Source: Acholoe squamosa
Lineage: Eukaryota > Annelida > Polychaeta > Phyllodocida > Polynoidae
NCBI GenBank assembly: GCA_949317995.1
Contig: OX439035.1
Coordinates: forward strand, 1,256,681 to 1,320,680
Length of the DNA: 64,000 nucleotides
Direction: 5' to 3'
A program made the position numbers and the translations under genes. Below the pieces are notes generated by a model, which saw nothing but the letters and a program-made list of their open reading frames with translations, did no database searches and was not told the DNA's origin. Positions 3,001 through 60,388 of the stretch are shown in pieces. Within the stretch, counting starts at the first letter, position 1, and the number at the start of each line of letters is the position of its first letter.

Positions 3001-6000
3001 TATTGTATATATACACACCTATAGATATCACACATCTACACAGTCCTACCATAGGTAAGGTATACCTATTGTATAAATACACACCTATAGATAACACACA
3101 CATATACACATGTACAGAGACCTACCATAGGTTAGGCATACCTATTGTATATACACACCTATAGATATCACACATCTACACAGACCTACCATAGGTTAGG
3201 TATACCTATTGTATATATACACACCTATAGATAACACACACATATACACATGTACACAGACCTACCATAGGTTAGGTATACCTATTGTATATATACACAC
3301 CTATAGATATCACACATGTACACAGTCCTACCATAGGTTAGGTATACCTATTGTATATATACACACCTATAGATATCACACATCTACACAGACCTACCAT
3401 AGGTTAGGTATACCTATTGTATATATACACACCTATAGATAACACACACATATACACATGTACACAGACCTACCATAGGTTAGGTATACCTATTGTATAT
3501 ATACACACCTATAGATATCACACATCTACACGGACCTACCATAGGTTAGGTATACCTATTGTATATATACACACCTATAGATAACACACACATATACACA
3601 GACCTACCAAAGGTTAGGTATACCTATTGTATATTACACACCTATAGATATCACACATGTACACAGACCTACCATAGGTTAGGTATACCTATTGTATATT
3701 ACACACCTATAGATATCACACATCTACACAGTCCTACCATAGGTTAGGTATACCTATTGTATATATACACACCTATAGATATCACACATCTAACAGTCCT
3801 ACCATAGGTTAGGTATACCTATTATATATATACATACCTATAGATATCACACATGTACACAGTCCTACCATAGGTTAGGTATACGTATTGTATATATACA
3901 CACCTATAGATATCACACATCTACACAGACTTACCATAGGTTAGGTATACCTATTGTATATATACACACCTATAGATATCACACATCTACACAGTCCTAC
4001 CATAGGTTAGGCATACCTATTATATATATACATACCTATAGATATCACACATCTACACAGTCCTACCATAGGTTAGGTATACCTATTGTATATATACACA
4101 CCTATAGATATCACACATCTACACAGTCCTACCATAGGTTAGGTATACCTATTGTATATATACACACCTATAGATATCACACATCTAACAGTCCTACCAT
4201 AGGTTAGGTATACCTATTATATATATACATACCTATAGATATCACACATCTACACAGTCCTACCATAGGTTAGGTATACCTATTGTATATATACACACCT
4301 ATAGATATCACACATCTACACAGACTTACCATAGGTTAGGTATACCTATTGTATATATACACACCTATAGATATCACACATCTACACAGTCCTACCATAG
4401 GTAAGGTATACCTATTGTATAAATACACACCTATAGATAACACACACATATACACATGTACACAGACCTACCATAGGTTAGGCATACCTATTGTATATAC
4501 ACCTATAGATATCACACATCTACACAGACCTACCATAGGTTAGGCATACCTATTGTATTTATACACACCTATAGATATCACACATCTACACAGACCTACC
4601 ATAGGTTAGGTATACCTATTGTATATATACACACCTCTAGATAACACACACATATACACATGTACACAAAACTACCATAGGTTAGGTATACCTATTGTAT
4701 ATATACACACCTATAGATATCACACATCTACACGGACCTACCATAGGTTAGGTATACCTATTGTATATATACACACCTATAGATAACACACATCTACACA
4801 GACCTACCATAGGTTAGGTATACCTATTGTATATATACACACCTATAGATAACACACACATATACACATGTACACAGACCTACCATAGGTTAGGTATACC
4901 TATTGTATATTACACACCTATAGATATCACACATGTACACAGACCTACCATAGGTTAGGTATACCTATTGTATATTACACACCTATAGATATCACACATC
5001 TACACAGACCTACCATAGGTTAGGTATACCTATTGTATATATACACACCTATAGATATCACACATCTACACAGACCTACCATAGGTTAGGCATACCTATT
5101 GTATATATACACACCTATAGATAACACACATCTACACAGACCTACCATAGGTTAGGTATACCTATTGTATATATACACACCTATAGATATCACACACGTA
5201 TACACATCTACACAGACCTACCATAGGTTAGGTATACCTATTGTATATATACACACCTATAGATATCACACACGTATACACATCTACACAGACCTACCAT
5301 AGGTTAGGTATACCTATTGTATATATACATACCTATAGATATCACACATCTACACAGTCCTACCATAGGTTAGGCATACCTATTATATATATACATACCT
5401 ATAGATATCACACATCTACACAGTCCTACCATAGGTTAGGTATACCTATTGTATATATACACACCTATAGATATCACACATCTACACAGTCCTACCATAG
5501 GTTAGGTATACGTATTGTATATATACACACCTATAGATATCACACATCTAACAGTCCTACCATAGGTTAGGTATACCTATTATATATATATACATACCTA
5601 TAGATATCACACATCTACACAGTCCTACCATAGGTTAGGTATACCTATTGTATATATACACACCTATAGATATCACACATCTACACAGACTTACCATAGG
5701 TTAGGTATACCTATTGTATATATACACACCTATAGATAACACACATCTACACAGACCTACCATAGGTTAGGTATACCTATTGTATATATACACACCTATA
5801 GATAACACACACATATACACATCTACACAGACCTACCATAGGTTAGGTATACCTATTGTATATATACACACCTATAGATATCACACACGTATACACATCT
5901 ACACAGACCTACCATAGGTTAGGTATACCTATTGTATATATACACACCTATAGATATCACACATCTACACAGTCCTACCATAGGTTAGGTATACCTATTG

Positions 6001-9000
6001 TATATATACACACCTATAGATATCACACATCTACACAGTCCTACCATAGGTTAGGTATACCTATTGTATATATACACACCTATAGATATCACACATCTAC
6101 ACAGTCCTACCATAGGTTAGGTATACCTATTGTATATATACACACCTATAGATATCACACATCTACACAGTCCTACCATAGGTTAGGTATACCTATTGTA
6201 TATATACACACCTATAGATATCACACATCTACACAGTCCTACCATAGGTAAGGTATACCTATTGTATAAATACACACCTATAGATAACACACACATATAC
6301 ACATGTACACAGACCTACCATAGGTTAGGCATACCTATTGTATATACACACCTATAGATATCACACATCTACACAGACCTACCATAGGTTAGGTATACCT
6401 ATTGTATATATACACACCTATAGATAACACACACATATACACATGTACACAGACCTACCATAGGTTAGGTATACCTATTGTATATATACACACCTATAGA
6501 TATCACACATGTACACAGTCCTACCATAGGTTAGGTATACCTATTGTATATATACACACCTATAGATATCACACATCTACACAGACCTACCATAGGTTAG
6601 GTATACCTATTGTATATATACACACCTATAGATAACACACACATATACACATGTACACAGACCTACCATAGGTTAGGTATACCTATTGTATATATACACA
6701 CCTATAGATATCACACATCTACACGGACCTACCATAGGTTAGGTATACCTATTGTATATATACACACCTATAGATAACACACACATATACACAGACCTAC
6801 CAAAGGTTAGGTATACCTATTGTATATTACACACCTATAGATATCACACATGTACACAGACCTACCATAGGTTAGGTATACCTATTGTATATTACACACC
6901 TATAGATATCACACATCTACACAGTCCTACCATAGGTTAGGTATACCTATTGTATATATACACACCTATAGATATCACACATCTAATAGTCCTACCATAG
7001 GTTAGGTATACCTATTATATATATACATACCTATAGATATCACACATGTACACAGTCCTACCATAGGTTAGGTATACCTATTGTATATATACACACCTAT
7101 AGATATCACACATCTACACAGACTTACCATAGGTTAGGTATACCTATTGTATATATACACACCTATAGATATCACACATCTACACAGTCCTACCATAGGT
7201 TAGGCATACCTATTATATATATACATACCTATAGATATCACACATCTACACAGTCCTACCATAGGTTAGGTATACCTATTGTATATATACACACCTATAG
7301 ATATCACACATCTACACAGTCCTACCATAGGTTAGGTATACCTATTGTATATATACACACCTATAGATATCACACATCTAACAGTCCTACCATAGGTTAG
7401 GTATACCTATTATATATATACATACCTATAGATATCACACATCTACACAGTCCTACCATAGGTTAGGTATACCTATTGTATATATACACACCTATAGATA
7501 TCACACATCTACACAGACTTACCATAGGTTAGGTATACCTATTGTATATATACACACCTATAGATATCACACATCTACACAGTCCTACCATAGGTAAGGT
7601 ATACCTATTGTATAAATACACACCTATAGATAACACACACATATACACATGTACACAGACCTACCATAGGTTAGGCATACCTATTGTATATACACCTATA
7701 GATATCACACATCTACACAGACCTACCATAGGTTAGGCATACCTATTGTATTTATACACACCTATAGATATCACACATCTACACAGACCTACCATAGGTT
7801 AGGTATACCTATTGTATATATACACACCTCTAGATAACACACACATATACACATGTACACAAACCTACCATAGGTTAGGTATACCTATTGTATATATACA
7901 CACCTATAGATATCACACATCTACACGGACCTACCATAGGTTAGGTATACCTATTGTATATATACACACCTATAGATAACACACATCTACACAGACCTAC
8001 CATAGGTTAGGTATACCTATTGTATATATACACACCTATAGATAACACACACATATACACATGTACACAGACCTACCATAGGTTAGGTATACCTATTGTA
8101 TATTACACACCTATAGATATCACACATGTACACAGACCTACCATAGGTTAGGTATACCTATTGTATATTACACACCTATAGATATCACACACGTATACAC
8201 ATCTACACAGACCTACCATAGGTTAGGTATACCTATTGTATATATACATACCTATAGATATCACACATCTACACAGTCCTACCATAGGTTAGGCATACCT
8301 ATTATATATATACATACCTATAGATATCACACATCTACACAGTCCTACCATAGGTTAGGTATACCTATTGTATATATACACACCTATAGATATCACACAT
8401 CTACACAGTCCTACCATAGGTTAGGTATACGTATTGTATATATACACACCTATAGATATCACACATCTAACAGTCCTACCATAGGTTAGGTATACCTATT
8501 ATATATATACATACCTATAGATATCACACATCTACACAGTCCTACCATAGGTTAGGTATACCTATTGTATATATACACACCTATAGATATCACACATCTA
8601 CACAGACTTACCATAGGTTAGGTATACCTATTGTATATATACACACCTATAGATATCACACATCTACACAGTCCTACCATAGGTAAGGTATACCTATTGT
8701 ATAAATACACACCTATAGATAACACACACATATACACATGTACACAGACCTACCATAGGTTAGGCATACCTATTGTATATACACCTATAGATATCACACA
8801 TCTACACAGACCTACCATAGGTTAGGTATACCTATTGTATATATACACACCTATAGATATCACACACGTATACACATCTACACAGACCTACCATAGGTTA
8901 GGTATACCTATTGTATATTACACACCTATAGATATCACACATCTACACAGACCTACCATAGGTTAGGTATACCTATTGTATATATACACACCTATAGATA

Positions 9001-12000
9001 TCACACATCTACACAGACCTACCATAGGTTAGGCATACCTATTGTATATATACACACCTATAGATAACACACATCTACACAGACCTACCATAGGTTAGGT
9101 ATACCTATTGTATATATACACACCTATAGATATCACACACGTATACACATCTACACAGACCTACCATAGGTTAGGTATACCTATTGTATATATACACACC
9201 TATAGATATCACACACGTATACACATCTACACAGACCTACCATAGGTTAGGTATACCTATTGTATATATACATACCTATAGATATCACACATCTACACAG
9301 TCCTACCATAGGTTAGGCATACCTATTATATATATACATACCTATAGATATCACACATCTACACAGTCCTACCATAGGTTAGGTATACCTATTGTATATA
9401 TACACACCTATAGATATCACACATCTACACAGTCCTACCATAGGTTAGGTATACGTATTGTATATATACACACCTATAGATATCACACATCTAACAGTCC
9501 TACCATAGGTTAGGTATACCTATTATATATATATACATACCTATAGATATCACACATCTACACAGTCCTACCATAGGTTAGGTATACCTATTGTATATAT
9601 ACACACCTATAGATATCACACATCTACACAGACTTACCATAGGTTAGGTATACCTATTGTATATATACACACCTATAGATAACACACATCTACACAGACC
9701 TACCATAGGTTAGGTATACCTATTGTATATATACACACCTATAGATAACACACACATATACACATCTACACAGACCTACCATAGGTTAGGTATACCTATT
9801 GTATATATACACACCTATAGATATCACACACGTATACACATCTACACAGACCTACCATAGGTTAGGTATACCTATTGTATATATACACACCTATAGATAT
9901 CACACATCTACACAGTCCTACCATAGGTTAGGTATACCTATTGTATATATACACACCTATAGATATCACACATCTACACAGTCCTACCATAGGTTAGGTA
10001 TACCTATTGTATATATACACACCTATAGATATCACACATCTACACAGTCCTACCATAGGTTAGGTATACCTATTGTATATATACACACCTATAGATATCA
10101 CACATCTACACAGTCCTACCATAGGTTAGGTATACCTATTGTATATATACACACCTATAGATATCACACATCTACACAGTCCTACCATAGGTAAGGTATA
10201 CCTATTGTATAAATACACACCTATAGATAACACACACATATACACATGTACACAGACCTACCATAGGTTAGGCATACCTATTGTATATACACACCTATAG
10301 ATATCACACATCTACACAGACCTACCATAGGTTAGGTATACCTATTGTATATATACACACCTATAGATAACACACACATATACACATGTACACAGACCTA
10401 CCATAGGTTAGGTATACCTATTGTATATATACACACCTATAGATATCACACATGTACACAGTCCTACCATAGGTTAGGTATACCTATTGTATATATACAC
10501 ACCTATAGATATCACACATCTACACAGACCTACCATAGGTTAGGTATACCTATTGTATATATACACACCTATAGATAACACACACATATACACATGTACA
10601 CAGACCTACCATAGGTTAGGTATACCTATTGTATATATACACACCTATAGATATCACACATCTACACGGACCTACCATAGGTTAGGTATACCTATTGTAT
10701 ATATACACACCTATAGATAACACACACATATACACAGACCTACCAAAGGTTAGGTATACCTATTGTATATTACACACCTATAGATATCACACATGTACAC
10801 AGACCTACCATAGGTTAGGTATACCTATTGTATATTACACACCTATAGATATCACACATCTACACAGTCCTACCATAGGTTAGGTATACCTATTGTATAT
10901 ATACACACCTATAGATATCACACATCTAATAGTCCTACCATAGGTTAGGTATACCTATTATATATATACATACCTATAGATATCACACATGTACACAGTC
11001 CTACCATAGGTTAGGTATACCTATTGTATATATACACACCTATAGATATCACACATCTACACAGACTTACCATAGGTTAGGTATACCTATTGTATATATA
11101 CACACCTATAGATATCACACATCTACACAGTCCTACCATAGGTTAGGCATACCTATTATATATATACATACCTATAGATATCACACATCTACACAGTCCT
11201 ACCATAGGTTAGGTATACCTATTGTATATATACACACCTATAGATATCACACATCTACACAGTCCTACCATAGGTTAGGTATACCTATTGTATATATACA
11301 CACCTATAGATATCACACATCTAACAGTCCTACCATAGGTTAGGTATACCTATTATATATATACATACCTATAGATATCACACATCTACACAGTCCTATC
11401 ATAGGTTAGGTATACCTATTGTATATATACACACCTATAGATATCACACATCTACACAGACTTACCATAGGTTAGGTATACCTATTGTATATATACACAC
11501 CTATAGATATCACACATCTACACAGTCCTACCATAGGTAAGGTATACCTATTGTATAAATACACACCTATAGATAACACACACATATACACATGTACACA
11601 GACCTACCATAGGTTAGGCATACCTATTGTATATACACCTATAGATATCACACATCTACACAGACCTACCATAGGTTAGGCATACCTATTGTATTTATAC
11701 ACACCTATAGATATCACACATCTACACAGACCTACCATAGGTTAGGTATACCTATTGTATATATACACACCTCTAGATAACACACACATATACACATGTA
11801 CACAAACCTACCATAGGTTAGGTATACCTATTGTATATATACACACCTATAGATATCACACATCTACACGGACCTACCATAGGTTAGGTATACCTATTGT
11901 ATATATACACACCTATAGATAACACACATCTACACAGACCTACCATAGGTTAGGTATACCTATTGTATATATACACACCTATAGATAACACACACATATA

Positions 12001-15000
12001 CACATGTACACAGACCTACCATAGGTTAGGTATACCTATTGTATATTACACACCTATAGATATCACACATGTACACAGACCTACCATAGGTTAGGTATAC
12101 CTATTGTATATTACACACCTATAGATATCACACACGTATACACATCTACACAGACCTACCATAGGTTAGGTATACCTATTGTATATATACATACCTATAG
12201 ATATCACACATCTACACAGTCCTACCATAGGTTAGGCATACCTATTATATATATACATACCTATAGATATCACACATCTACACAGTCCTACCATAGGTTA
12301 GGTATACCTATTGTATATATACACACCTATAGATATCACACATCTACACAGTCCTACCATAGGTTAGGTATACGTATTGTATATATACACACCTATAGAT
12401 ATCACACATCTAACAGTCCTACCATAGGTTAGGTATACCTATTATATATATACATACCTATAGATATCACACATCTACACAGTCCTACCATAGGTTAGGT
12501 ATACCTATTGTATATATACACACCTATAGATATCACACATCTACACAGACTTACCATAGGTTAGGTATACCTATTGTATATATACACACCTATAGATATC
12601 ACACATCTACACAGTCCTACCATAGGTAAGGTATACCTATTGTATAAATACACACCTATAGATAACACACACATATACACATGTACACAGACCTACCATA
12701 GGTTAGGCATACCTATTGTATATACACCTATAGATATCACACATCTACACAGACCTACCATAGGTTAGGTATACCTATTGTATATATACACACCTATAGA
12801 TATCACACACGTATACACATCTACACAGACCTACCATAGGTTAGGTATACCTATTGTATATATACATACCTATAGATATCACACATCTACACAGTCCTAC
12901 CATAGGTTAGGTATACCTATTGTATATATACACACCTATAGATATCACACATCTACACAGACTTACCATAGGTTAGGTATACCTATTGTATATATACACA
13001 CCTATAGATATCACACATCTACACAGTCCTACCATAGGTTAGGTATACCTATTGTATATATACACACCTATAGATATCACACATCTACACAGTCCTACCA
13101 TAGGTTAGGTATACCTATTGTATATATACACACCTATAGATATCACACACCTACACAGTCCTACCATAGGTTAGGTATACCTATTGTATATATACACACC
13201 TATAGATATCACACATCTACACAGTCCTACCATAGGTAAGGTATACCTATTGTATAAATACACACCTATAGATAACACACACATATACACATGTACACAG
13301 ACCTACCATAGGTTAGGCATACCTATTGTATATACACACCTATAGATATCACACATCTACACAGACCTACCATAGGTTAGGTATACCTATTGTATATATA
13401 CACACCTATAGATAACACACACATATACACATGTACACAGACCTACCATAGGTTAGGTATACCTATTGTATATATACACACCTATAGATATCACACATGT
13501 ACACAGTCCTACCATAGGTTAGGTATACCTATTGTATATATACACACCTATAGATATCACACATCTACACAGACCTACCATAGGTTAGGTATACCTATTG
13601 TATATATACACACCTATAGATAACACACACATATACACATGTACACAGACCTACCATAGGTTAGGTATACCTATTGTATATATACACACCTATAGATATC
13701 ACACATCTACACGGACCTACCATAGGTTAGGTATACCTATTGTATATATACACACCTATAGATAACACACACATATACACAGACCTACCAAAGGTTAGGT
13801 ATACCTATTGTATATTACACACCTATAGATATCACACATGTACACAGACCTACCATAGGTTAGGTATACCTATTGTATATTACACACCTATAGATATCAC
13901 ACATCTACACAGTCCTACCATAGGTTAGGTATACCTATTGTATATATACACACCTATAGATATCACACATGTACACAGTCCTACCATAGGTTAGGTATTC
14001 CTATTGTATATATACACACCTATAGATAACACACATCTACACAGACCTACCATAGGTTAGGTATACCTATTGTATATATACCCACCTATAGATATCACAC
14101 ATCTACACAGACCTACCATAGGTAAGCTATACCTATTATATATATACACACCTATAGATATCACACATCTACACACTTCTACCATAGGTTAGGTATACCT
14201 ATTGTATATATACACACCTATAGATATCACACATCTACACAGTCCTACCATAGGTTAGGTATACTTATTGTATATATACACACCTATAGATATCACACAT
14301 CTACACAGACCTACCATAGGTTAGCTATACCTATTATATATATACACACCTATAGATATCACACATCTACACACTCCTACCATAGGTTAGGTATACCTAT
14401 TGTATATATACACACCTATAGATATCACACATCTACACAGTTCTACCATAGGTTAGGTATACCTATTGTATATATACACACCTATAGATAACACACGTCT
14501 ACACAGTCCTACCATAGGTTAGGTATACCTATTGTATATATACACACCTATAGATAACACACACATATACACATGTACACAGACCTACCATAGGTTAGGC
14601 ATACCTTTTGTATATACACACCTATAGATATCACACATCTACACAGACCTACCATAGGTTAGGCATACCTATTGTATATATACACACCTATAGATAACAC
14701 ACATCTACACAGACCTACCATAGGTTAGGTATACCTATTGTATATATACACACCTATAGATAACACACACCTACACAGACCTACCATAGGTTAGGTATAC
14801 ATGTTGTATATATACACACCTATAGATAACACACATCTACACAGTCCTACCATAGGTTAGGTATACCTATTGTATATATACACACCTATAGATATCACAC
14901 ATCTACACAGACCTACCATAGGTTAGGTATACATGTTGTATATATACACACCTATAGATAACACACATCTACACAGTCCTACCATAGGTTAGGTATACCT

Positions 15001-16057
15001 ATTGTATATATACACACCTATAGATAACACACATCTACACAGTCCTACCATAGGTTAGGTATACCTATTGTATATATACACACCTATAGATATCACACAT
15101 CTACACAGACCTACCATAGGTTAGCTATACCTATTATATATATACACACCTATAGATATCACACATCTACACACTTCTACCATAGGTTAGGTATACCTAT
15201 TGTATATATACACACCTATAGATATCACACATCTACACAGTCCTACCATAGGTTAGGTATACTTATTGTATATATACACACCTATAGATATCACACATCT
15301 ACACAGACCTACCATAGGTTAGCTATACCTATTATATATATACACACCTATAGATATCACACATCTACACACTCCTACCATAGGTTAGGTATACCTATTG
15401 TATATATACACACCTATAGATATCACCCATCTACACAGTTCTACCATAGGTTAGGTATACCTATTGTATATATACACACCTATAGATAACACACGTCTAC
15501 ACAGTCCTACCATAGGTTAGGTATACCTATTGTATATATACACACCTATAGATATCACACATCTACACAGACCTACCATAGGTTAGGCATACCTATTGTA
15601 TATACACACCTATAGATATCACACATCTACACAGACCTACCATAGGTTAGGTATACCTATTCTATATATACACACCTATAGATAACACACATCTACACAG
15701 ACCTACCATAGGTTAGGTATACCTATTGTATAAATACACACCTATAGATATCACACATGTACACAGTCCTACCATAGGTTAGGTATACCTATTGTATATA
15801 TACACACCTATAGATATCACACATGTACACAGTCCTACCATAGGTTAGGTATTCCTATTGTATATATACACACCTATAGATAACACACATCTACACAGAC
15901 CTACCATAGGTTAGGTATACCTATTGTATATATACACACCTATAGATATCACACATCTACACAGACCTACCATAGGTTAGGTATACCTATTGTATATATA
16001 CACACCTATAGATAACACACATATACACAGTCCTACCATAGGTTAGGTATACCTATT
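1..16057. repeat. 66-bp satellite array, left block
   Basis: Head-to-tail copies of a ~66-bp AT-rich monomer fill the block and run off the left edge. Each unit carries CCTACCATAGGTTAGG, the palindrome TAGGTATACCTA, then GTATATATACACACCTATAG and a CACACATCTACACAG tail. A longer variant (~76 bp) has an extra CACGTATACA-type insert in the tail. Recurring point variants (GGCATACC, GTACACAG, TTAGCTATACC, AATAG) mark higher-order units: one marker variant recurs at about 37, 1896, 5089 and 9032, spacings of 1859, 3193 and 3943 bp. A second higher-order pattern with a 998-bp period occupies roughly 14100-16057. The short open frames on the plus strand mostly begin at TTG and are repeat translation, not genes. 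Confidence 0.97.
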
Positions 16058-16226
16058 ATAAGTTATTTCGCTGACAGGGAATAATAAATACCGGTAATAA
16101 CGATAATAATAATGTTGATATATACAGTAATAATAATATATGATAAGTAGTATAATAAATGATCATATCACAGACACATGAGTTTGGTGGGTTACTGACC
16201 TTGGGGCTATCAGCACCATACATGCC
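16058..16226 (-). repeat. Ngaro element repeat A, outer copy
   Basis: This 169-bp repeat forms the outer 3' end of the minus-strand element. It matches 16553-16721 throughout, starting at ATAAGTTATTTCGCTGAC and ending at CACCATACATGCC. It directly follows a satellite monomer cut after CCTATT. Confidence 0.93.
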
Positions 16227-16339
16227 TTTATTAAAACAACTATAACAATTAGTTGACAAAGCATAGTCAGTAAAATGCACAATATAATAAAAGTAGTATA
16301 GTAATAACAATAGTAATAACAATAGTAATAACAATAGTA
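16227..16339 (-). other. Spacer between outer A repeat and inner B repeat
   Basis: About 113 bp of AT-rich sequence with AATAGTAATAAC-type triplet runs lies between the outer A repeat and the inner B repeat. It makes the split-repeat end longer than a simple A-B block. It shows no coding potential: the minus-strand frame across it is a leucine run from the microsatellite. Confidence 0.8.
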
Positions 16340-16552
16340 AAAATTTAAAAATCAAGGAAACACCCAGCGTGGTGTTACCTGTACAGGTGAAAACGAGCCA
16401 ATTGACCGTTACCTTGAAAATCCCCTCTTATATACTGGAGGGGTGTTGATCATGACGTCATACTATGACATCATAGATACCAATGCGCGCTGCAAGTAGT
16501 CCCTAACCGTTCGCGAATAATTATATAAATATACACGAGTGTATATAGTTCT
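16340..16552 (-). repeat. Ngaro element repeat B, inner copy
   Basis: This 213-bp repeat appears identical to 20758-20970. It contains CAGCGTGGTGTTACCTGTAC and TGATCATGACGTCATACTAT and ends in GTATATAGTTCT. It abuts the inner A copy at 16553, which makes the B|A junction expected of a circularised intermediate. Confidence 0.93.
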
Positions 16553-16721
16553 ATAAGTTATTTCGCTGACAGGGAATAATAAATACCGGTAATAACGATA
16601 ATAATAATGTTGATATATACAGTAATAATAATATATGATAAGTAGTATAATAAATGATCATATCACAGACACATGAGTTTGGTGGGTTACTGACCTTGGG
16701 GCTATCAGCACCATACATGCC
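16553..16721 (-). repeat. Ngaro element repeat A, inner copy
   Basis: This is the second 169-bp A copy, identical by eye to 16058-16226. It lies just downstream of the recombinase frame on the minus strand, 46 bp past its stop codon. Confidence 0.93.
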
Positions 16722-16767
16722 AAAAACACATAAAAACACGCCAAACACATGTGAAAACACATACCAA

Positions 16768-17715
16768 TCAACAATGCAATTGAGATTGGCAAAGTCTATC
16801 TAATTCCAAAAGTTCATTTTTATGATTATGTAAATATGTAAAAACAGAATTAGATTTCCAATTCACCTTCTTTTTAATAGAATCTACACTAAGTCCTGCA
16901 TCCTTTAACATAGTAGCACCACCATGCCTAAGTGAGTGAGTGGAAACTGAACCTTTGATACCAGCACGTATAGATAAAGATTTCAACCTCGAATTAATAT
17001 ATTGGTACTGTAGAGGAACACCATTAATTTTGAATAACAAATCACTCACACCCCTACCTGCGCACAATCTTCCTAAGTCTTTACATGGACATAACAGTGA
17101 GGTATCGTCCCTACATAAGTATATGTTAAAAGAATGGCTACCAAGCTGGTCAGTCTTTGAAGTTTTAATGCGAAGGCTAGCATAACTATTAAAAATCCTA
17201 ACATCACCTACCCTCAGTGTATGAGGAGAAGATACAACATGTCCTACCCTGAGGACACCTCTAAAACATAAGAGAATAGCTAACAAGAACTTCAAGTCAG
17301 CCCTGTTGGAGAGATCCAAATACGATCTAATACATAACATTTCTTTTGGACTCAATGGGTGAGTAACCCTAGAAGGAACAGCATAATTTCTATCAATACC
17401 ATCCAACACCTTTTTTAGCATGAAATTACTGCTATGGTCTAAGCCACCTCTAAGTTTTTGATGATACCAAATGGATGATAAATAATTCCTTACAGAAGAA
17501 GGTTTCATATAACTAGATAAATATACTGCATAAGTAGCAGCTTGTGAGGGAGAACAAGGAAATTTAGGTAAATTAAATTTATCACAAAATTTTTTGTACC
17601 TTTTAAGTTGTTGTTTCCTTGTTCTCCTCGTATTCTCTGACACACCCTTCGCTAAAAGACACTCTTTTCTTTTTTGTAACCTTTTCCATTCTGGAATTAA
17701 AGCAACACATATCAT
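16768..17715 (-). CDS. Tyrosine recombinase of the Ngaro-like element
   Basis: This 315-residue tyrosine recombinase (phage-integrase fold) would integrate the circular DNA intermediate of the element. The first ATG is at 17715; the frame is open slightly further upstream without an ATG. An N-terminal DNA-binding part covers about residues 1-120. The catalytic part shows the first Arg in FRGVLR (R156), a candidate Lys in LRIKTSK (residues 184-187), the HSLR box (H260, R263), a Trp at 286 in place of the second His, and the nucleophile candidate Y294 in VFTYLHN. The frame is complete and overlaps the 3' end of the RT/RNase H frame by about 110 bp in a different phase, so translation probably needs reinitiation, frameshifting or a separate message. 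The function is supported by motif order; integrase activity is inferred. Confidence 0.9.
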   Translation of the reverse strand: MICVALIPEWKRLQKRKECLLAKGVSENTRRTRKQQLKRYKKFCDKFNLPKFPCSPSQAATYAVYLSSYMKPSSVRNYLSSIWYHQKLRGGLDHSSNFMLKKVLDGIDRNYAVPSRVTHPLSPKEMLCIRSYLDLSNRADLKFLLAILLCFRGVLRVGHVVSSPHTLRVGDVRIFNSYASLRIKTSKTDQLGSHSFNIYLCRDDTSLLCPCKDLGRLCAGRGVSDLLFKINGVPLQYQYINSRLKSLSIRAGIKGSVSTHSLRHGGATMLKDAGLSVDSIKKKVNWKSNSVFTYLHNHKNELLELDRLCQSQLHC

Positions 17716-19633
17716 TTTCAAGAAGAGAGTTTACACATTTGTCCAGTATACCCTTATAAGCAAGTCTAGATAGTTGGTCGGCCAGGACATTGTCTTCTGA
17801 CTTAATATAGGTTGCATACACCTCCACATTATTGATGAAACAAAGCCAAAAAATTTCTCTAAGCCATTCCATACAAAGCTTATTTTTTGACCTACCGGTA
17901 TTAATCATAGCTAACACTTGCATATTGTCGGTAACGCAATGTATTCTTTTATTTTTACAGCCAGATATCCAACGTCTAAGACCCATAAGAAGGGGATATA
18001 ACTCGTATACATTTATATTTCTATGGTGGTTTTTTAAAATATCTAGTATTGGTGGTTGAGTAAAATGACCACTACCTAGACTGAATTTATCAAAAGATGT
18101 CCAGTCACCATATAAATAATCTTTACCCATCCAAGCCCCAAAGCCTTTCATGGATGAATCAGAGTACATTGGAGTATTGAAACGATCATTTAGAATCAAA
18201 CTTTTACCATTAAAAGTATTACAGAATCTCAACCACCATTCCATATCATTCCTTGTACACTCAGAAATTTTTATAGTACCTCTAGGCCTTGCTCTGGCAC
18301 AAAGATCAAAAATTCTGCGACTAAAGGTTCTCCCACCCTTAACCACCTGTGAGCAGAACGACATTAAACCACCTATCCTCTCTAAGTTCTTTTTAGAAAT
18401 AAATTTCTTATTAACGTTATCTAATAAGAGATTTTCCATTTTTTCCACCTTTTCAATAGGCAAAGACAGTTCCAACTTAACTGAATCTATGTTAATGCCC
18501 AAGAATTTACAAAATTGAGATGGTTCGGTTACCTTTTCTTTGGATACCACAAAACCCATGTACACCATACACTCCATTAATAAATTCCTCTGTCTAAGAC
18601 ACTCATCATAAGTATCCGCAATTATGATAAAGTCGTCCAGATAATTTACAATTTTTTCTACACCGTAGAATTTTGCTACTTCTACAATAAAATCAGAGAT
18701 TTTATTAAAAATATAAGGGGCACATTTTAGGCCAAAGGTTAATCTGTTGCTTACATAAAAATCCTCTCAATGCCCAAAATTCCATCTGAAACCCTGCATG
18801 GTCGTGTGTGGTGCATACACATTTATAGACCTGTAAGCTGACTTTAAATCCACCACACTCATGAAATCGTTCTTATTCAATTGAGCAGTGACAGTGCTAA
18901 TATTATTATAAGAAAAGGTCGAGCTAGTAGTCTCCATAAAATTATTAATAGATATTTTATCAGGCATACTACAGTCAGTTATGGGTCTTAACTTGCCATT
19001 TGATTTTTCTACACCACCTAAAGCATGGATACAACGGGGTTTATCTACACTTTTAGAGACTAGACCAGCTTCTAGTTCATCTAACAATATACCACAGTAC
19101 TCATTATAGAATTTTCCCTCAAGGATTGACTTATAATTTCTGCAATCATAAGAAGTATTGCAATCAGGATCCACTATCCTGAACCCCTCAACAAAACCTT
19201 GCCATAAGAATAGCGCCTCCTTGTCGTTTACATTAATAATACCTTTCTGAGTTAGGAAAGAGGCAACTCTGCAAGGTAAAATTTGGGAATTTTTTCCATT
19301 GATATAATGAACACAATCGCACACACCATTTATACAGCTATCATACACTTCGATGCTAGGTAAATCATTAATAGCAACCGTAAACAGTGGTTTAACCTTG
19401 CCCTGTACTGGGCCACTATATGATATATCCAAACCAACCGTGTTGGATTTAATATTAATATCATTTTCAACATAACTTTGTAAACTTGATACGCTGATAT
19501 CATTCAGAGAGACCAAATCTACAACTCCAGCATTAACTATACCAACACCCCGAGCTGGAGCAGCGGGTGGAGGCGAACTAGGGTCTACCAAACCTACTAT
19601 ACATGACTTCGACATCGACACACCGTCACACAT
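17603..19633 (-). pseudogene. Reverse transcriptase/RNase H, interrupted by one in-frame TGA
   Basis: This frame runs from an ATG at 19633 to a stop at 17603 and is open except for a single TGA at 18769-18767 (codon 289). Upstream of the stop is RT palm motif A with the catalytic Asp in VVDLKSAYR (D262). Downstream are the GLKCAPYIF region and the catalytic YLDD box at 18643-18632. The C-terminal RNase H domain has the acidic set in order: YSDSS, the Glu of VYELYP, the Asp of VTDNMQ and a late Asp in EDNVLADQLSRL. The stop falls between motif A and YLDD, so a product ending there would lack the active site. The break looks like one point mutation (CGA to TGA at a CpG is plausible), not decay, because the rest of the frame is intact. 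The start lies eight codons past the gag stop, in the same frame. Confidence 0.88.
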
Positions 19634-19657
19634 AGGACCCAGCTCACCTGTAAAATC

Positions 19658-20713
19658 CTAATCAGACCTGTTTACCTGGCAATCCACCTTACTGTGGCCT
19701 GGTTTAGTACATGAACTGCAAACATGCCTATATTTACATGGGTCCCTAGAACAACCTTCCACCCTGTTAAAGGCATAACATGGATTCGTAGATACCCTAA
19801 TCTTACCAGAACTCTTTGGTTTGGTTGAATAGGCCTTCTGGGCTTGTACTGTTCTGTCATAGGACAAATGACGGAGGATATCCGAATTTTCAATCATAGC
19901 AAAGGCATTTAAACCAACAGTATTGGCTCTGTCCCTAACGGACTTGTCATATGCTACTAAGGCTTTTACAGTGAAAATTTTTGTGTTTGACTTCTCAACC
20001 AACATCTGGAGATGCCTGAGCATGCCCTCCACATCGTCCCCATCCTTGTAATAATCTATAATGAATTTGATATTGACCAACACGAGTTTCTCAATGCTAT
20101 CGACTTTGTCACGTTTTTTAACGAATTGTTCATGGTCAAACTCACCAATTTTTTGCTTGGCGTGATGGCGATGAATTGACGAGTCCATTGACGACCCTCT
20201 TGACGAGCTGGGACTCCTGTGACGAGCGGTATAAGACGATTTCGACCTCGTTTGACGACCTCTACGTCCTGCTCTGGTCCACTCGCCGCCATCTTGGTTG
20301 CTATGGACGCTGTCGTTGTCAACGTCCCGCTTAAGACCACGCCCCCGTCGCCTTGGATTCGCGTCTCTCGAATCTTGTTTGTACACAGATGCACGTGCTC
20401 CCGCTGCCCCGCTGTCCGGTCCGCTCAAAAGATTCATCTCGTCCTTACGGGCCCCTTGGCTAGCAATAACGTCTCGCAGCATATTCTTTATATCCAAAAG
20501 GTCTTCCTCCATCAAGTCTAGCCTCGTCTGGTCAACAATCTCACTCTCTTTAGCCTGTGGCGAATTAGGCTGTAAGGGCTCCAGACCCCCACATAGAGAG
20601 GTGAGACTGCTCGAAGATCCCAAATTGGCCGATTCTCGGTCCGTTTTAGCCGATTTAGCCGATTTTTTCGACGAACCCTTCTTCCTCGCACCTGCAGTAG
20701 TTTTTCTTCCCAT
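19658..20713 (-). CDS. Gag-like protein of the Ngaro-like element
   Basis: This is a 351-residue basic, low-complexity protein. I place the start at the ATG at 20713; the open frame extends six codons further to a TTG. The N-terminal third is rich in Lys, Ser and Arg, and residues about 120-190 are Arg/Ser-rich. The C-terminus carries two zinc motifs in a row: a CCCH finger of form C-x8-C-x4-C-x3-H, then a knuckle of form C-x2-C-x4-H-x4-C. This matches a nucleic-acid-binding Gag. The frame ends in TAG at 19660-19658, only 24 bp before the pol ATG and in the same reading frame. Low similarity is normal for Gag, so the call rests on position and zinc motifs. Confidence 0.82.
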   Translation of the reverse strand: MGRKTTAGARKKGSSKKSAKSAKTDRESANLGSSSSLTSLCGGLEPLQPNSPQAKESEIVDQTRLDLMEEDLLDIKNMLRDVIASQGARKDEMNLLSGPDSGAAGARASVYKQDSRDANPRRRGRGLKRDVDNDSVHSNQDGGEWTRAGRRGRQTRSKSSYTARHRSPSSSRGSSMDSSIHRHHAKQKIGEFDHEQFVKKRDKVDSIEKLVLVNIKFIIDYYKDGDDVEGMLRHLQMLVEKSNTKIFTVKALVAYDKSVRDRANTVGLNAFAMIENSDILRHLSYDRTVQAQKAYSTKPKSSGKIRVSTNPCYAFNRVEGCSRDPCKYRHVCSSCTKPGHSKVDCQVNRSD

Positions 20714-20757
20714 GCTTGAGCCGATTTCCAAGCAGTAAAACCGGAAAAAACTTGTTT

Positions 20758-20970
20758 AAAATTTAAAAATCAAGGAAACACCCAGCGTGGTGTTACCTGT
20801 ACAGGTGAAAACGAGCCAATTGACCGTTACCTTGAAAATCCCCTCTTATATACTGGAGGGGTGTTGATCATGACGTCATACTATGACATCATAGATACCA
20901 ATGCGCGCTGCAAGTAGTCCCTAACCGTTCGCGAATAATTATATAAATATACACGAGTGTATATAGTTCT
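20758..20970 (-). repeat. Ngaro element repeat B, outer copy (5' end)
   Basis: This 213-bp repeat is the 5' end of the minus-strand element and matches 16340-16552. The element promoter is presumably here, upstream of gag; no clear TATA box or initiator can be assigned with confidence. It is followed directly by the satellite at GTATATATACACACC. Confidence 0.92.
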
Positions 20971-22460
20971 GTATATATACACACCTATAGATAACACACA
21001 TCTACACAGTCCTACCATAGGTTAGGTATACCTATTGTATATATACACACCTATAGATATCACACATCTACACACTTCTACCATAGGTTAGGTATACCTA
21101 TTGTATATATACACACCTATAGATATCACACATCTACACAGTCCTACCATAGGTTAGGTATACTTATTGTATATATACACACCTATAGATATCACACATC
21201 TACACAGACCTACCATAGGTTAGCTATACCTATTATATATATACACACCTATAGATATCACACATCTACACACTCCTACCATAGGTTAGGTATACCTATT
21301 GTATATATACACACCTATAGATATCACACATCTACACAGTTCTACCATAGGTTAGGTATACCTATTGTATATATACACACCTATAGATAACACACGTCTA
21401 CACAGTTCTACCATAGGTTAGGTATACCTATTGTATATATACACACCTATAGATATCACACATCTACACAGACCTACCATAGGTTAGGTATACCTATTGT
21501 ATATATACACACCTATAGATATCACACACATATACACAGACCTACCATAGGTTAGGTATACCTATTGTATATATACACACCTATAGATATCACACATGTA
21601 CACAGTCCTACCATAGGTTAGGTATTCCTATTGTATATATACACACCTATAGATAACACACATCTACACAGACCTACCATAGGTTAGGTATACCTATTGT
21701 ATAAATACACACCTATAGATATCACACATCTACACGGACCTACCATAGGTTAGGTATACCTATTGTATATATACACACCTATAGATAACACACATCTACA
21801 CAGACCTACCATAGGTTAGGTATACCTATTGTATATATACACACCTATAGATATCACACATCTACACGGACCTACCATAGGTTAGGTATACCTATTGTTT
21901 ATATACACACCTATAGATATCACACATCTACACAGTCCTACCATAGGTTAGCTATACCTATTGTATATATACACACCTATAGATATCACACACGTATACA
22001 CATTTACACAGACCTACCATAGGTTAGGTATACCTATTGTATATATACACACCTATAGATATCACACATGTACACAGTCCTACCATAGTTTAGGTATACC
22101 TATTGTATATATACACACCTATAGATATCACACATCTACACAGACCTACCAGAGGTTAGGTATACCTATTGTATATATACACACCAATAGATATTACACA
22201 TCTACACAGTCCTACCATAGGTTAGGTATACCTATTGTATATATACACACCTATAGATATCACACATCTACACAGACCTACCATAGGTTAGGTATACCTA
22301 TTGTATATATACACACCTATAGATATCACACATCTACACAGTCCTACCATAGGTTAGGTATACCTATTGTATATATACACACCTATAGATATCACACATC
22401 TACACAGACCTACCATAGGTTAGATATACCTATTGTATATATACACACCTATAGATATCA
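20971..22460. repeat. 66-bp satellite array, right block
   Basis: This is the continuation of the same satellite after the retroelement. The first unit completes the monomer cut at 16057. The variants TTAGCTATACC and CACACTTCTACC, which mark the ~1-kb higher-order unit at 14100-15500, recur here at about 21069-21225. The array stops within CTATAGATATCA at 22460. The open frame at 21961-22467 is repeat translation. Confidence 0.96.
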
Positions 22461-26192: not shown

Positions 26193-28035
26193 AAAGTTAT
26201 CAAATAATCATAGAATGGTGGAATAATTCACAAAGGCTTATGTTCATTATGTGGCCATACTCCAACACTAACTATGATTGAGAGTCTTGGTGCCTGCTCA
26301 GTGACATCTTTCTACCATATCGACCTGTATAAGTGCCCGGGTACTCAACCAAGCTATACCTCCAGCCTTCAGGACCGGTGTCATTCAAGATTGAAATTAC
26401 ACTGTAAATGAATGGTGTCCAAATAATGAACGATTCCTCATCCAAAGGTTGCCAGAGATCCATTGGTATTTTCCGACATGTTGTTATTTTCCCGGGGTTA
26501 TTTTCACAGAGATTCCTTGTACCATCGCACTGCCACCTGGAACTTATTCTGAAAACCACAGTGGCTCCCTGTTACCTAACCCGTGTAAACCCAGCACCTA
26601 TTCAAGACTGCGCTCTTTCAGGACTAGGCGCTTTTACCAGCCAATACGGTATGTTGTATATTTCCGAGCTGACACACCTTAGTAACTGCAAACATCTCAC
26701 CTGGACGTCCTTATGTACCACATGATGCAACAGCAAGGTTAGGAGGAGAGCATATCCTGGTCTCTCTGTGCCATTCTTTGTTCAAGCTTACATCAACACG
26801 CCTCAATCATCTGCCAACCCACACAGCAAGGCCTAAGTTAGTTGGGGACCGTATCCCACACCACCTGTAAATGATATGCACCAATAGGAATACAAGCAGA
26901 CAATATGTTACTGAGGGGGACTTTGCATGTATTTTATGGTTTGGTATGATATTTATACTTTTTCTCAGCTGGCATTGGCTGCTGGTTGCCTGCCCATCCC
27001 GTCTTGTCATATCCAAGGATATTCATCTACATCATGAAATAAATACTTACATATCTGCCAATTATCCTTAGTCAATTATTCTTAGCCTAAGCAGAAGTTT
27101 TCTGCTGAACTCTCTGGAGGTTAATACAAAACATTCTATCATCAGTCCCTCAGCAATGGCAGGAATTTCCAGCTCTATTGATAACTCTGATGGTAGGATG
27201 TGTCTGGCATGCATTCACACAGGCAGCGCTTTTGATTGTTCTGGTGGAAGGCTGAGGGGTTGGGCCCTGCATACACTATCACACGCAAGGCAAACTAGAC
27301 ACAGTGGCAATAGGGCCAAAATAAATCAATAGCTGTGGAAGGACTCCTTTTCACAAAAGGGTATAAACAATCATTCCCCTTTATCCTATGAGCTACTTAT
27401 AGTGTGTACTGGCTGCCCCTCAGGGAGGGAGAATGTATAACTCTGATAGGGCATGTAAAGATGAGTGGTTTATGAGTACAGGAGGAGTAATAGTATGTGC
27501 AGCTAGTACTGTGGCAATCCACTAGCGAATTCTTTTCCTGCCACCAGCACTGTGGAAAATCAATAGTGAATAATCAACAGGACTTGCTGTGCCTGACTGG
27601 GCTACTACCAGTTAGATAGATAGGATCAAATGACTAGGTCTTATAAAATCAACAGGATTTGCCAACACTAACATTGCTGGGGAACTGATAATAGAAAGTT
27701 TTTCACCTTCTGGTGGCCTTTTGCTGTATGAGTATACAGGGAAAATCGATTTGATACTTTGATTCTAACATTTTTAGGTAATATATACGGGACCAAGGTG
27801 AGGGTGTTTGATTCAAGCACCCTGATGACAGCAGGGAGGCATTTCTCAAGATGGTACGACTAGACCCCTCCAAATCAGAGTGCACTGAAAACCTACAGTC
27901 TAACTAATGAAAATTTAAAAATCAAAAAAGCTCCGGGGTCCTAGGACCCCAGGTTGGACCCCCCTGTTATGCTAGGACAGTTGGGAAAATTTGGGTGTGT
28001 GTCAGATCTAACCCCTACATGCCTCCAGCCACCTA
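26193..28035. other. Intergenic region upstream of the sulfotransferase gene
   Basis: No supported gene. The minus-strand leader exon and promoter of the sulfotransferase probably lie here or further upstream but cannot be placed. A perfect 16-bp palindrome GGGGTCCTAGGACCCC occurs at 27933-27948. Open frames at 26272-26559, 26408-26725 and 26807-27016 show no recognisable domain or splice context. Confidence 0.5.
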
Positions 28036-30345
28036 GGTTTGGGTTCTGGTACAAGCTGCAGCGTATATGAGGTTTGGGTTCTGGTACAGGCTGCAGCGTA
28101 TATGAGGTTTGGGTTCTGCTACAAACTGCAGCTTATATCAGGTTTGGGTTCTGGTACAAGCTGCAGCTTATGTGAGGTTTGGGTTCTGGTACACGCTGCA
28201 GCTTATATCAGGTTTGGGTTCTGGTACAAGCTGCAGCTTATATCAGGTTTGGGTTCTGGTACAAACTACAGCTTATATCAGGTTTGGGTTCTGGTACAAG
28301 CTGCAGCTTATGTGAGGTTTGGGTTCTGGTACACGCTGCAGCTTATATCAGGTTTGGGTTCTGGTACAAGCTGCAGCTTATATCAGGTTTGGGTTCTGGT
28401 ACAAACTGCAGCTTATATCAGGTTTGGGTTCTGGTACAAGCTGCAGCTTATGTGAGGTTTGGGTTCTGGTACACGCTGCAGCTTATATCAGGTTTGGGTT
28501 CTGGTACAAGCTGCAGCTTATATCATGTTTGGGTTCTGGTACAAGCTGCAGCTTATATCAGGTTTGGGTTTTGGTACAAGCTGCAGCTTATATCAGGTTT
28601 GGGTTCTGGTACAAGCTGCAGCTTATGTGAGGTTTGGGTTCTGGTACACGCTGCAGCTTATATCAGGTTTGGGTTCTGGTACAAGCTGCAGCTTATATCA
28701 GGTTTGGGTTCTGGTACAAACTACAGCTTATATCAGGTTTAAGTTCTGGTACAAACTGCAGCTTATGTGAGATTTGGGTTCAGGTACAAGCTGCAGCTTA
28801 TATCAGATTGGGTTCTGGTACAAGCTGCACTTTATATGAGGTTTGGGTTCTGGTACAAGCTGCAGCTTATATCATGTTTAGATTTTGGTACAAACTGCAG
28901 CTTATATCAGGTTTGGGTTCTGGTACAAGCTGCAGCTTATATGAGGTTTGGGTTCTGGTACAAACTGCAGCTTATATGAGGTTTGGATTCTGGTACAAGC
29001 TGCAGCTTATATGAGGTTTGGGTTCTGGTACAAACTGCAGCTTATATCAGGTTTGGGTTCTAGTACAAGCTGCAGCTTATATCATGTTTGGATTCTGGTA
29101 CAAGCTGCAGCTTATATGAGGTTTGGGTTCTGGTACAAGCTGCAGCTTATATCAGGTTTGGGTTCCGGTGCAAGCTGCAGCTTATATCATGTTTGGATTC
29201 TGGTACAAACTGCAGCTTATATCAGGTTTGGGTTCTGGTACAAGCTGCAGCTTATATGAGGTTTGGGTTCTGGTACAAGCTGCAGCTTATATGAGGTTTG
29301 GGTTCAGGTACAAGCTGTAGCTTATATCAGGTTTGGGTTCTGGTACAAGCTGCAGCTTATATGAGGTTTGGGTTTTGGTACAAGCTGCAGCTTATATCAG
29401 GTTTGGGTTCTGGTACAAGCTGCAGCTTATATCATGTTTGGGTTCTGGTACAAGCTGCAGCTTATATCAGGTTTGGGTTCTGGTACAAGCTGCAGCTTAT
29501 ATCATGTTTGGGTTCTGGTACAAGCTGCAGCTTATATCAGGTTTGGGTTCTGGTACAAGCTGCAGCTTATATCAGGTTTGGGTTCTGGTACAAACTACAG
29601 CTTATGTGAGATTTGGGTTCAGGTACAAGCTGCAGCTTATATCAGATTGGGTTCTGGTACAAGCTGCACTTTATATGAGGTTTGGGTTCTGGTACAAGCT
29701 GCAGCTTATATCAGGTTTGGGTTCTGGTACAAGCTGCAGCTTATATCATGTTTGGATTCTGGTACAAGCTGCAGCTTATATGAGGTTTGGGTTCAGGTAC
29801 AAGCTGTAGCTTATATCAGGTTTGGGTTCTGGTACAAGCTGCAGCTTATATCAGGTTTGGGTTCTGGTACAAGCTGCAGCTTATATGAGGTTTGGGTTTT
29901 GGTACAAGCTGCAGCTTATATCAGGTTTGGGTTCTGGTACAAACTGCAGCTTATACGAGGTTTGGGTTTTGGTACAAGCTGCAGCTTATATCAGGTTTGG
30001 GTTCTGGTACAAACTGCAGCTTATACGAGGTTGGGGTTCTGGTACAAGCTGCAGCTTATATGAGGTTTGGTTTCTGGTACAAACTGCAGCTTATATCAGG
30101 TTTGGGTTCTGGTGCAAGCTGCAGCTTATATGAGGTTTGGGTTCTGGTACACGCTGCAGCTTATATCAGGTTTGGGTTCTGGTACAAGCTGCAGCTTATA
30201 TCAGGTTTAAGTTCTGGTACAAGCTGCAGCTTATATCGGGTTTGGGTTCTGGTACAAACTGCAGCTTATATGAGGTTTGGGTTCTGGTACAAGCTGTAGC
30301 TTATATCAGTTTTAAGTTCTGGTACAAACTGCAGCTTATACGAGG
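28036..30345. repeat. 35-bp minisatellite, about 66 copies
   Basis: The unit reads GGTTTGGGTTCTGGTACAAG followed by CTGCAGCTTATATCA. Variants swap TATATCA, TATATGA and TATGTGA, ACAAGC, ACACGC and ACAAAC, and GGGTTC and GGGTTT. Nearly every unit has a PstI-type CTGCAG. Since 35 is not a multiple of 3, each forward frame cycles through all three phases and stays open for long stretches, giving many overlapping spurious frames with the same repeated peptide. Confidence 0.97.
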
Positions 30346-43600: not shown

Positions 43601-43870
43601 CCACTATAAGGGGAACACAGGGTGATGTAATTATACAGTCTTAAGGCCACAGTCCACTATAAGGGGAACACAGGGTGAGGTAATAATACAGTCTTAAGGC
43701 CACAGTCCACTATAAGGGGAACACAGGGTGAGGTAATAATACAGTCTTAAGGCCACAGTCCACTATAAGGGGAACACAGGGTGATGTAATAATACAGTCT
43801 TAAGGCCACAGTCCACTATAAGGGAACACAGGGTGAGGTAATAATACAGTCTTAAGGCCACAGTCCACTA
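40676..43870. repeat. 53-bp minisatellite, about 60 copies
   Basis: The unit starts GGCCACAGTCCACTATAAGG, continues GGAACACAGGGTGATGTAAT and ends AATACAGTCTTAA. Variants include TATTAGCGG for TATAAGGGG, GAGGTAAT for GATGTAAT, and a minority type with ACATGGTGATATAATTGTAC. The types are interspersed, suggesting repeated local duplication or gene conversion. No coding content. Confidence 0.97.

Positions 43871-50152: not shown

Positions 50153-50223
<71 letters not shown>
50153..50223. repeat. TA dinucleotide microsatellite
   Basis: About 35 uninterrupted TA units, preceded by CATATCATATCAATATA. Confidence 0.95.
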
Positions 50224-51298: not shown

Positions 51299-51328
51299 GT
51301 GACCGCCTTGAGCCTCCCCAAAAATGAC

Positions 51329-60300: not shown

Positions 60301-60388
60301 TGTGTCCATACATCAATATGACAATAGTTGCCTGTAGCTGCGGCTGTGTCCATACATCAATATGACAATAGTTGCCTGTAGCTGCGGC
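51329..60388. repeat. 9-kb minisatellite of mixed 44-bp and 36-bp units
   Basis: The core is GGTGCCTGTAGCTGCGGCTG, then TATCCATACATCAATA; long units add TGACAATA and short units lack these 8 bases. By length there are over 200 copies. Variants are GGTGCC/GCTGCC/GTTGCC, TGCGGC/TGCAGC/TGTGGC and GTATCC/GTGTCC. Higher-order copies exist: 52541-53009 recurs at 53289-53757 (748 bp apart), and a block with the rare ATATGACTATAGG variant at about 55845 recurs at 57293 (1448 bp apart). Open frames on both strands are repeat translation. Confidence 0.97.

What the first reader, a model, noticed from the sequence alone, without database searches (positions are those of the whole stretch)
16051..20985. 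Ngaro element inserted in satellite with no target duplication; its own circle junction is preserved inside
The left flank ends CCTATT and the right flank begins GTATATA, which together restore a normal satellite monomer. The inner B|A junction (GTTCT|ATAAG, 16552/16553) equals what would form if the two outer ends (20970 and 16058) were joined. This supports the circular-intermediate, recombinase-mediated integration model for this group and gives an exact empty site for comparison.
Basis: partly seen in the sequence, partly recalled or inferred. Interest (0 to 1): 0.7.

Follow-up and report, generated by a model that had tools for sequence, protein, structure and literature searches.

The report
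Ngaro retrotransposon that targets AT repeats
A mobile element that copies itself through RNA sits in a satellite repeat with no duplicated target bases, and comparing it with its sister copies suggests that this family splices itself mostly into AT-repeat tracts, at an apparently fixed three-letter crossover point.

Summary
A 4,913-bp element (16058-20970, genes on the minus strand) with the Ngaro layout A1-gag-RT/RNaseH-YR-B1-A2-B2 lies in a 66-bp satellite. Its A copies (213 bp) and B copies (169 bp) are identical, so the inner junction equals the joined outer ends. Each satellite half, given 500 bp or more, picks adjacent bases of the same array (15069/15070): no base or monomer was gained or lost.

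Sister copies show more. Of the 40 best-scoring copies, 38 sit in (AT)n tracts of at least 20 bp; L017 and the window copy do not. One base X between GTTC and ATAAG is C or T. It always matches the right outer end (40 of 40), while the left neighbour is always T (40 of 40), so that T comes from the target. Right flanks start with ATA in 73 of 74 readable cases. This fits a tyrosine-recombinase crossover within a 3-bp ATA core. The window copy (ATA left, GTA right) is a rare mismatched case that argues against a hidden 3-bp duplication. No circle was observed. My literature searches showed no report of AT-microsatellite targeting by a Ngaro.

The parts
16058..20970 (-). whole Ngaro element, 4,913 bp, coding strand minus
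16058..16226 (-). B2 repeat (outer 3' end on the coding strand); its outermost bases on the + strand are the ATA proposed as crossover core
   Evidence: identical to 16553-16721
16227..16339 (.). spacer between B2 and A2 with a 12-bp tandem repeat at its end (16298-16340)
16340..16552 (-). A2 repeat; base 16552 (T) is the variable base X
   Evidence: identical to 20758-20970
16552..16553 (.). inner A2|B1 junction GTTCT|ATAAG, equal to the joined outer ends
16553..16721 (-). B1 repeat
16768..17730 (-). tyrosine recombinase ORF, 320 aa stop to stop, with R161, H265xxR268, W291, Y299
   Evidence: Pfam Phage_integrase 2.2e-11; weak Cre alignment; invariant in 18 aligned copies
17603..19657 (-). 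reverse transcriptase / RNase H frame; in this copy interrupted by one TGA at 18767-18769
   Evidence: RVT_1 7.6e-11 and 0.0085 in the two pieces, searched apart; a stop at that codon in 1 of 40 copies
19658..19660 (-). single in-frame TAG between gag and pol, conserved in sister copies
19661..20713 (-). gag-like ORF, 351 aa, ending in a CX2CX4HX4C zinc knuckle (motif recognised from memory; no Pfam hit)
20758..20970 (-). A1 repeat (outer 5' end on the coding strand)
16052..16057 (+). left flank CCTATT; the final T is target-derived
20971..20980 (+). right flank GTATATATAC; begins GTA instead of the usual ATA
15069..15070 (.). paralogous empty site in the same array

Best explanation
A Ngaro-type tyrosine-recombinase retrotransposon. 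Its RNA is reverse-transcribed, with the B1-A2 stretch serving to complete both ends, into DNA whose joined ends carry ...GTTC-X-ATA-AGTT... The recombinase then exchanges this junction with a chromosomal ...T-ATA-T... site within the ATA, usually inside an (AT)n microsatellite. All target bases are kept once. Shown: element anatomy, repeat identity, the paralogous empty site, X staying with the right end, T on the left, ATA on the right, and (AT)n enrichment. Inferred: the circular intermediate, catalysis by the encoded recombinase, the 3-bp width of the exchange, and how the AT preference is achieved (recombinase binding or a host factor). The window copy used an imperfect core (GTA) at the edge of a short AT run in the 66-bp satellite.
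For: Inner junction identical to joined outer ends. Empty site at 15069/15070 found separately by both flanks of 500 bp or more. 40 best-scoring copies: X inner = X right end in 40 of 40 (25 C, 15 T), left base T in 40 of 40, alternating AT runs of 20 bp or more in total in 38 of 40, and 10 bp or more on both sides in 31 of 40. Genome-wide right-end pattern: 1,217 hits against 3 control hits; of the 75 rows shown with letters, 1 inner-type row dropped, the right flank begins ATA in 73 of 74 and has an AT run of 8 or more in 63 of 74. Of 9 genome-wide hits with a base other than A after X, 5 have X = C or T: window, L049, L052, L053, L056. Left-end pattern: 71 hits with T, 1 with another base. 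Background: about 45,075 AT tracts of 20 bp or more in 1.48 Gb (517 + 21,558); in the window minus the element, 71 of 59,087 bases. R, HxxR, W, Y invariant in 18 aligned copies and aligned with Cre, weakly.
Against: No circle, junction read or activity was observed. In perfect (AT)n any even-length duplication or loss is invisible, so the no-duplication proof rests mainly on the window copy. 26 of 243 ACCTATT units of the array read ATTAT, which would offer an ATA core; if the original target was such a unit and the right flank later changed to G, the window copy would lose its discriminating power (the phase-matched empty unit reads G). The 40 copies are the best-scoring of 2,990 first-look candidates, hence a biased sample. 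Letters could be read for only 75 of 1,217 right ends, all on contig 1. The ATA core is partly confounded with the AT preference: only 11 of the 74 read sites have short right-hand AT runs, 10 starting ATA and 1 (window) GTA. L053 (GTC) and L056 (TTA), both diverged copies, do not fit ATA. The left-end patterns leave out sites with G eleven bases before X, the window included.
Confidence: 0.85

Rival explanations
1. A cut-and-paste type (DDE-like) integration that makes a 3-bp ATA target duplication, hidden inside the AT repeats.
For: In (AT)n copies the element can be written as AG...GTTCX flanked by ATA on both sides. A Ginger2-like DDE transposase is reported for (AT/TA)n insertion of sesarmid nimaviruses (PMC10871703, abstract and passages).
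Against: The window copy has ATA on the left and GTA on the right, and the phase-matched empty unit reads ATT|GTA, so the left ATA came with the element. The inner junction also carries ATA. The element encodes a tyrosine recombinase; Pfam scans of the four window ORF pieces (E up to 0.1) and of gag and pol frames of one sister copy (E up to 5) listed no DDE integrase.
Confidence: 0.05
2. The AT tracts are not targets: they grow from, or travel with, the element ends after random insertion.
For: Both element ends are AT-rich, and microsatellites expand.
Against: AT-run lengths differ widely on the two sides (2-63 left, 3-51 right among the 39 other copies) although 28 of 40 copies have 0 or 1 difference over about 370 bp of repeat. 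L028 and L046 lie in opposite orientation beside the same repeated flank, 651 bp at 96%. About 45,075 such tracts exist against 1,217 right-end hits. The window copy and L017 lack long tracts.
Confidence: 0.05
3. Insertion is random, and only copies in harmless AT repeats survive selection.
For: Repeat-specific integration is discussed as a way to spare the host (PMC10871703, passage).
Against: Selection would not fix the exact phase: T on the left in 71 of 72 and ATA on the right in 73 of 74. 28 of 40 copies are young by repeat identity.
Confidence: 0.03
4. The window insertion is an assembly artefact joining an element to a satellite.
For: Long satellites are hard to assemble, and no reads could be inspected.
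Against: Both junctions are base-exact, carry the family's ends, and the higher-order phase of the array continues across them.
Confidence: 0.02

Closest known systems
Ngaro retrotransposons (Goodwin and Poulter 2004, not held, recalled; layout as described in passages of PMC8547959 and PMC9210276)
   Same: A1-[gag, RT/RNaseH, YR]-B1-A2-B2 split direct repeats, no methyltransferase
   Different: Strong (AT)n microsatellite targeting with a mapped crossover point; gag and pol in one frame around a conserved UAG; only 46 bp lie between the YR stop and B1, so there is no room for the hydrolase ORF that amphibian Ngaros carry after YR (passage of PMC9210276)
DIRS1-like retrotransposons
   Same: Published model: a 3-bp circle junction recombines with an identical 3-bp genomic sequence without target duplication (PMC3266345, passage)
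   Different: DIRS1-like elements have inverted terminal repeats, internal complementary regions and a methyltransferase; none found here
Endogenous nimaviruses of crustaceans
   Same: Tyrosine recombinase tied to insertion in one microsatellite, (TAACC/GGTTA)n; other nimaviruses use (AT/TA)n (PMC10871703, abstract and passages)
   Different: Large DNA viruses rather than retrotransposons; their (AT)n insertion goes with a Ginger2-like DDE enzyme, not a tyrosine recombinase
Cafeteria Ngaro types
   Same: Ngaro elements with type-dependent integration preference (into virophage elements) and isolated AB repeats (PMC8547959, passages)
   Different: The passages I saw report a preference at the level of the recipient DNA, not of a sequence motif

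Membership tests
Ngaro | split direct repeats A1-ORFs-B1-A2-B2 | tested here: met
   213-bp and 169-bp identical pairs in that order on the minus strand
Ngaro | reverse transcriptase and RNase H | tested here: met
   RVT_1 7.6e-11 in a window piece and 5.3e-19 in a sister copy's pol frame; RVT_3 0.0021 there, below its curated cut-off, so the RNase H part is weak
Ngaro | tyrosine recombinase with catalytic residues | tested here: met
   Phage_integrase 2.2e-11; R, HxxR, W, Y line up with Cre, individual matches weak; invariant in 18 aligned copies; structure prediction failed (mean pLDDT 39.5)
Ngaro | no methyltransferase domain | tested here: met
   none listed in a 687-aa pol frame of a sister copy at E up to 5; 52 aa follow the RNase H match
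Ngaro | no target-site duplication | tested here: met
   window copy against its paralogous empty unit; not decidable in perfect (AT)n copies
Ngaro | RT/YR phylogeny within the Ngaro clade | not tested
   no reference Ngaro sequences were at hand
DIRS1-like | inverted terminal repeats and internal complementary region | tested here: not met
   no inverted repeat pairs of 30 nt or more in 15950-21050
PAT-like | split direct repeats with a methyltransferase in pol | tested here: not met
   repeats present, methyltransferase not found

The most novel reading that the evidence does not exclude
A tyrosine-recombinase retrotransposon lineage that has specialised on (AT)n dinucleotide microsatellites, using a 3-bp ATA crossover core between its circle junction and the repeat, so that dispersed AT repeats act as a genome-wide set of attachment sites.
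Probability: 0.6. Interest if true: 0.65.

Novelty: new variant of a known kind. Interest (0 to 1): 0.58.

Why it matters
To my knowledge (recalled, not searched), how DIRS-order retrotransposons integrate has rested mostly on inference from element ends. Here a natural C/T marker beside the junction, over a thousand right-end matches in one genome and one mismatched-core insertion with its paralogous empty site locate the crossover to a few bases. It also offers a natural example of a recombinase-driven retrotransposon largely confined to a simple repeat, a possible safe-harbour strategy that can be tested biochemically.

Tried and rejected
Inverted repeats around the circle junction as recombinase arm sites: no convincing symmetry by eye, not computed. 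Structure prediction of the recombinase from 18 close copies gave mean pLDDT 39.5 and was not used. A PADLOC scan of the recombinase gave nothing. A search for an empty allele of L017, the only copy fetched with both flanks that lies outside satellite and microsatellite, did not complete. Two count patterns did not complete either: right ends followed by a long AT run and the base before the left T (sent once). Random background regions and the left flanks of L049, L052, L053 and L056 could not be fetched, so the background rests on a whole-genome tract count and on the window. Goodwin and Poulter 2004 is not held. Comparing joined flanks with each other gave one shared-flank case (L028/L046) but no clean empty site.
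Full report
What is there. The window lies at G000:C1:1256681-1320680 of a 1.48-Gb genome in 63 contigs. A 66-bp satellite fills 1-16057 and continues from about 20970 to 22460. Between them sits a 4,913-bp element, coding strand minus. On that strand the order is A1 (20970-20758), a gag-like ORF, RT/RNase H, tyrosine recombinase, B1 (16721-16553), A2 (16552-16340), spacer, B2 (16226-16058). The A copies (213 bp) and B copies (169 bp) are identical, so the inner junction equals the joined outer ends over 382 bp. Pfam finds Phage_integrase (2.2e-11) and RVT_1 (7.6e-11 and 0.0085) in the window's own pieces. In a 687-aa pol frame of a sister copy it finds RVT_1 (5.3e-19) and a sub-threshold RNase H-like match, but no methyltransferase. 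The recombinase aligns weakly with Cre at R, HxxR, W and Y, and these residues are invariant in 18 copies that I chose from the 40. This is the Ngaro layout as described in passages of PMC8547959 and PMC9210276.

The insertion point. Joined flanks read CCTATT|GTATATATAC. The joined 60-mer occurs exactly at two other places in the array. Because a tandem array could hide a gain or loss of whole monomers, I matched each half separately against the left array. With 500, 800 and 998 bp of flank the left half's best match ends at 15069 and the right half's starts at 15070. With 300 bp the right half still picks 15070, while the left half's three best matches are tied and lie elsewhere. The 1,600-bp joint as a whole matches 14260-15865 best, at 96.4%. 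The phase-matched empty unit reads CCTATT|GTATATATAC, so neither bases nor monomers were gained or lost. No empty allele from another haplotype was available.

Sister copies. A 750-bp end query scored 40 copies out of 2,990 first-look candidates; the 39 besides the window copy were fetched with flanks. In 38 of the 40 the element sits inside alternating AT tracts of at least 20 bp in total (31 of 40 with 10 bp or more on both sides); the two exceptions are L017 and the window copy. A single base X between GTTC and ATAAG is C in 25 and T in 15. Inner X and right-end X agree in 40 of 40, while the base left of the element is T in 40 of 40, also where X is C. So X belongs to the right end (the 5' end on the coding strand), the left T belongs to the target, and the crossover lies to the right of X. 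This removes the one-base ambiguity at 16057/20970 in the window copy.

Genome-wide counts. A right-end pattern built so that the canonical inner junction is excluded has 1,217 hits (610 + 607) against 3 for the reversed control; it also misses flanks with G at its last position, and it does not tell full elements from solo units. Letters were shown for the first 75 rows, all on contig 1. One inner-type row was dropped, leaving 74: the right flank begins ATA in 73 and GTA in 1 (the window); AT runs of at least 8 bp in 63, and of the full 13 visible bases in 49. Of the 11 with shorter runs, 10 begin ATA and one (window) GTA. Only 9 hits in the whole genome have a base other than A after X. Four of them have X = A and are chance matches or diverged copies; the other five are the window copy, L049 and L052 (both GTA), L053 (GTC) and L056 (TTA). 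On the left, a 21-base end pattern preceded by T has 71 hits and the same pattern preceded by A, C or G has 1; both leave out sites with G eleven bases before that base, the window included.

Background. Alternating AT tracts of at least 20 bp number about 45,075 in the genome: 23,517 ending in T plus 21,558 ending in A, read from the pattern and its control. The window outside the element holds one such tract, 71 of 59,087 bases. At an assumed 0.2% of the genome, 38 or more of 40 copies in such tracts has a binomial probability near 1e-100, with the caution that the 40 are not a random sample. The element thus targets AT repeats; the satellite copy is an outlier, placed at the edge of the short AT run GTATATATAC.

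Mechanism. The three bases that follow X in the junction, ATA, are also what follows the insertion on the right. In (AT)n this would look like a 3-bp ATA duplication. The window copy speaks against that: its left side has ATA although the empty unit has GTA there, and GTA remains once on the right. So the left ATA came with the element. This is what a conservative exchange within ATA predicts when one core base is mismatched and each side resolves one way. A caution: 26 of 243 ACCTATT units of the array read ATTAT, so a target with ATA and a later change to G on the right cannot be excluded, though the phase-matched unit has G. The picture agrees with the model described for DIRS1-like elements, in which a 3-bp junction recombines with an identical genomic sequence without target duplication (PMC3266345, passage). 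What remains inferred is the circle, the role of the encoded recombinase, the 3-bp width, and whether the AT preference comes from the recombinase or a partner. L053 and L056 do not fit ATA; they are diverged and their left flanks could not be fetched.

Known or new. Ngaro structure, absence of target duplication and circle models are known. My searches of the held library (listings, with passages read in eight papers) showed no report of a Ngaro or DIRS element aimed at AT microsatellites; most subscription papers are missing from it. The nearest case is crustacean nimaviruses, where a tyrosine recombinase goes with telomere-type repeats and a Ginger2-like enzyme with (AT/TA)n (PMC10871703, abstract and passages). 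I therefore rate this a new variant of a known kind.

Side results. Gag and pol share one frame with a single TAG between them. In 37 of 40 copies the RT-bearing ORF is preceded directly by TAG and an in-frame ORF of more than 200 aa; two (L014, L022) are disrupted, and the window copy has the TAG but also a TGA in RT that none of the other 39 has. In 13 aligned sequences, chosen from 26 distinct contexts plus the window, GA-n-TAG-GA is invariant although the surroundings diverge. This suggests UAG readthrough. Copies also share ends that are about 95-99% identical while part of gag drops to about 68% identity in many of them, which suggests exchange of ends between lineages.

Noticed in passing
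19658-19660 (minus strand) and sister copies L009-L047: gag and pol lie in one frame around a single UAG with invariant GA-n-UAG-GA context in 13 aligned sequences; 37 of 40 copies keep gag-UAG-RT, suggesting translational readthrough.
   Followed up: partly
18767-18769 (minus strand): The window copy has one TGA inside the reverse transcriptase frame, a stop seen at that codon in 1 of 40 copies, although its repeats are identical, so it is young but probably non-autonomous.
   Followed up: yes
L013 about 5514-5996 and L041 about 5539-6027 (oriented as the window): Solo B-A units of about 490 bp (78% and 93% identical to the window's) lie in the same AT tract as a full element, in L041 inverted; likely products of recombination between A repeats or separate insertions in a hot tract.
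   Followed up: partly
L010, L014, L016, L018-L020 and others against window 19715-20260: Element ends are about 95-99% identical between copies whose gag is only about 68% identical over this stretch, as if different coding lineages share or swap the same ends.
   Followed up: no
L028 and L046: Two copies in opposite orientation beside the same repeated flank (651 bp, 96% identical) at its AT tract.
   Followed up: partly
28035-30340, 34350-36094, 37709-39310, 40676-43870, 51328-60388: Five further tandem arrays longer than 1.5 kb (35-, 18-, 50-, 53- and 44-bp units) in 64 kb, besides the 66-bp satellite.
   Followed up: no
50153-50223: An unoccupied 71-bp AT tract in the window, the kind of site the family normally uses.
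   Followed up: no
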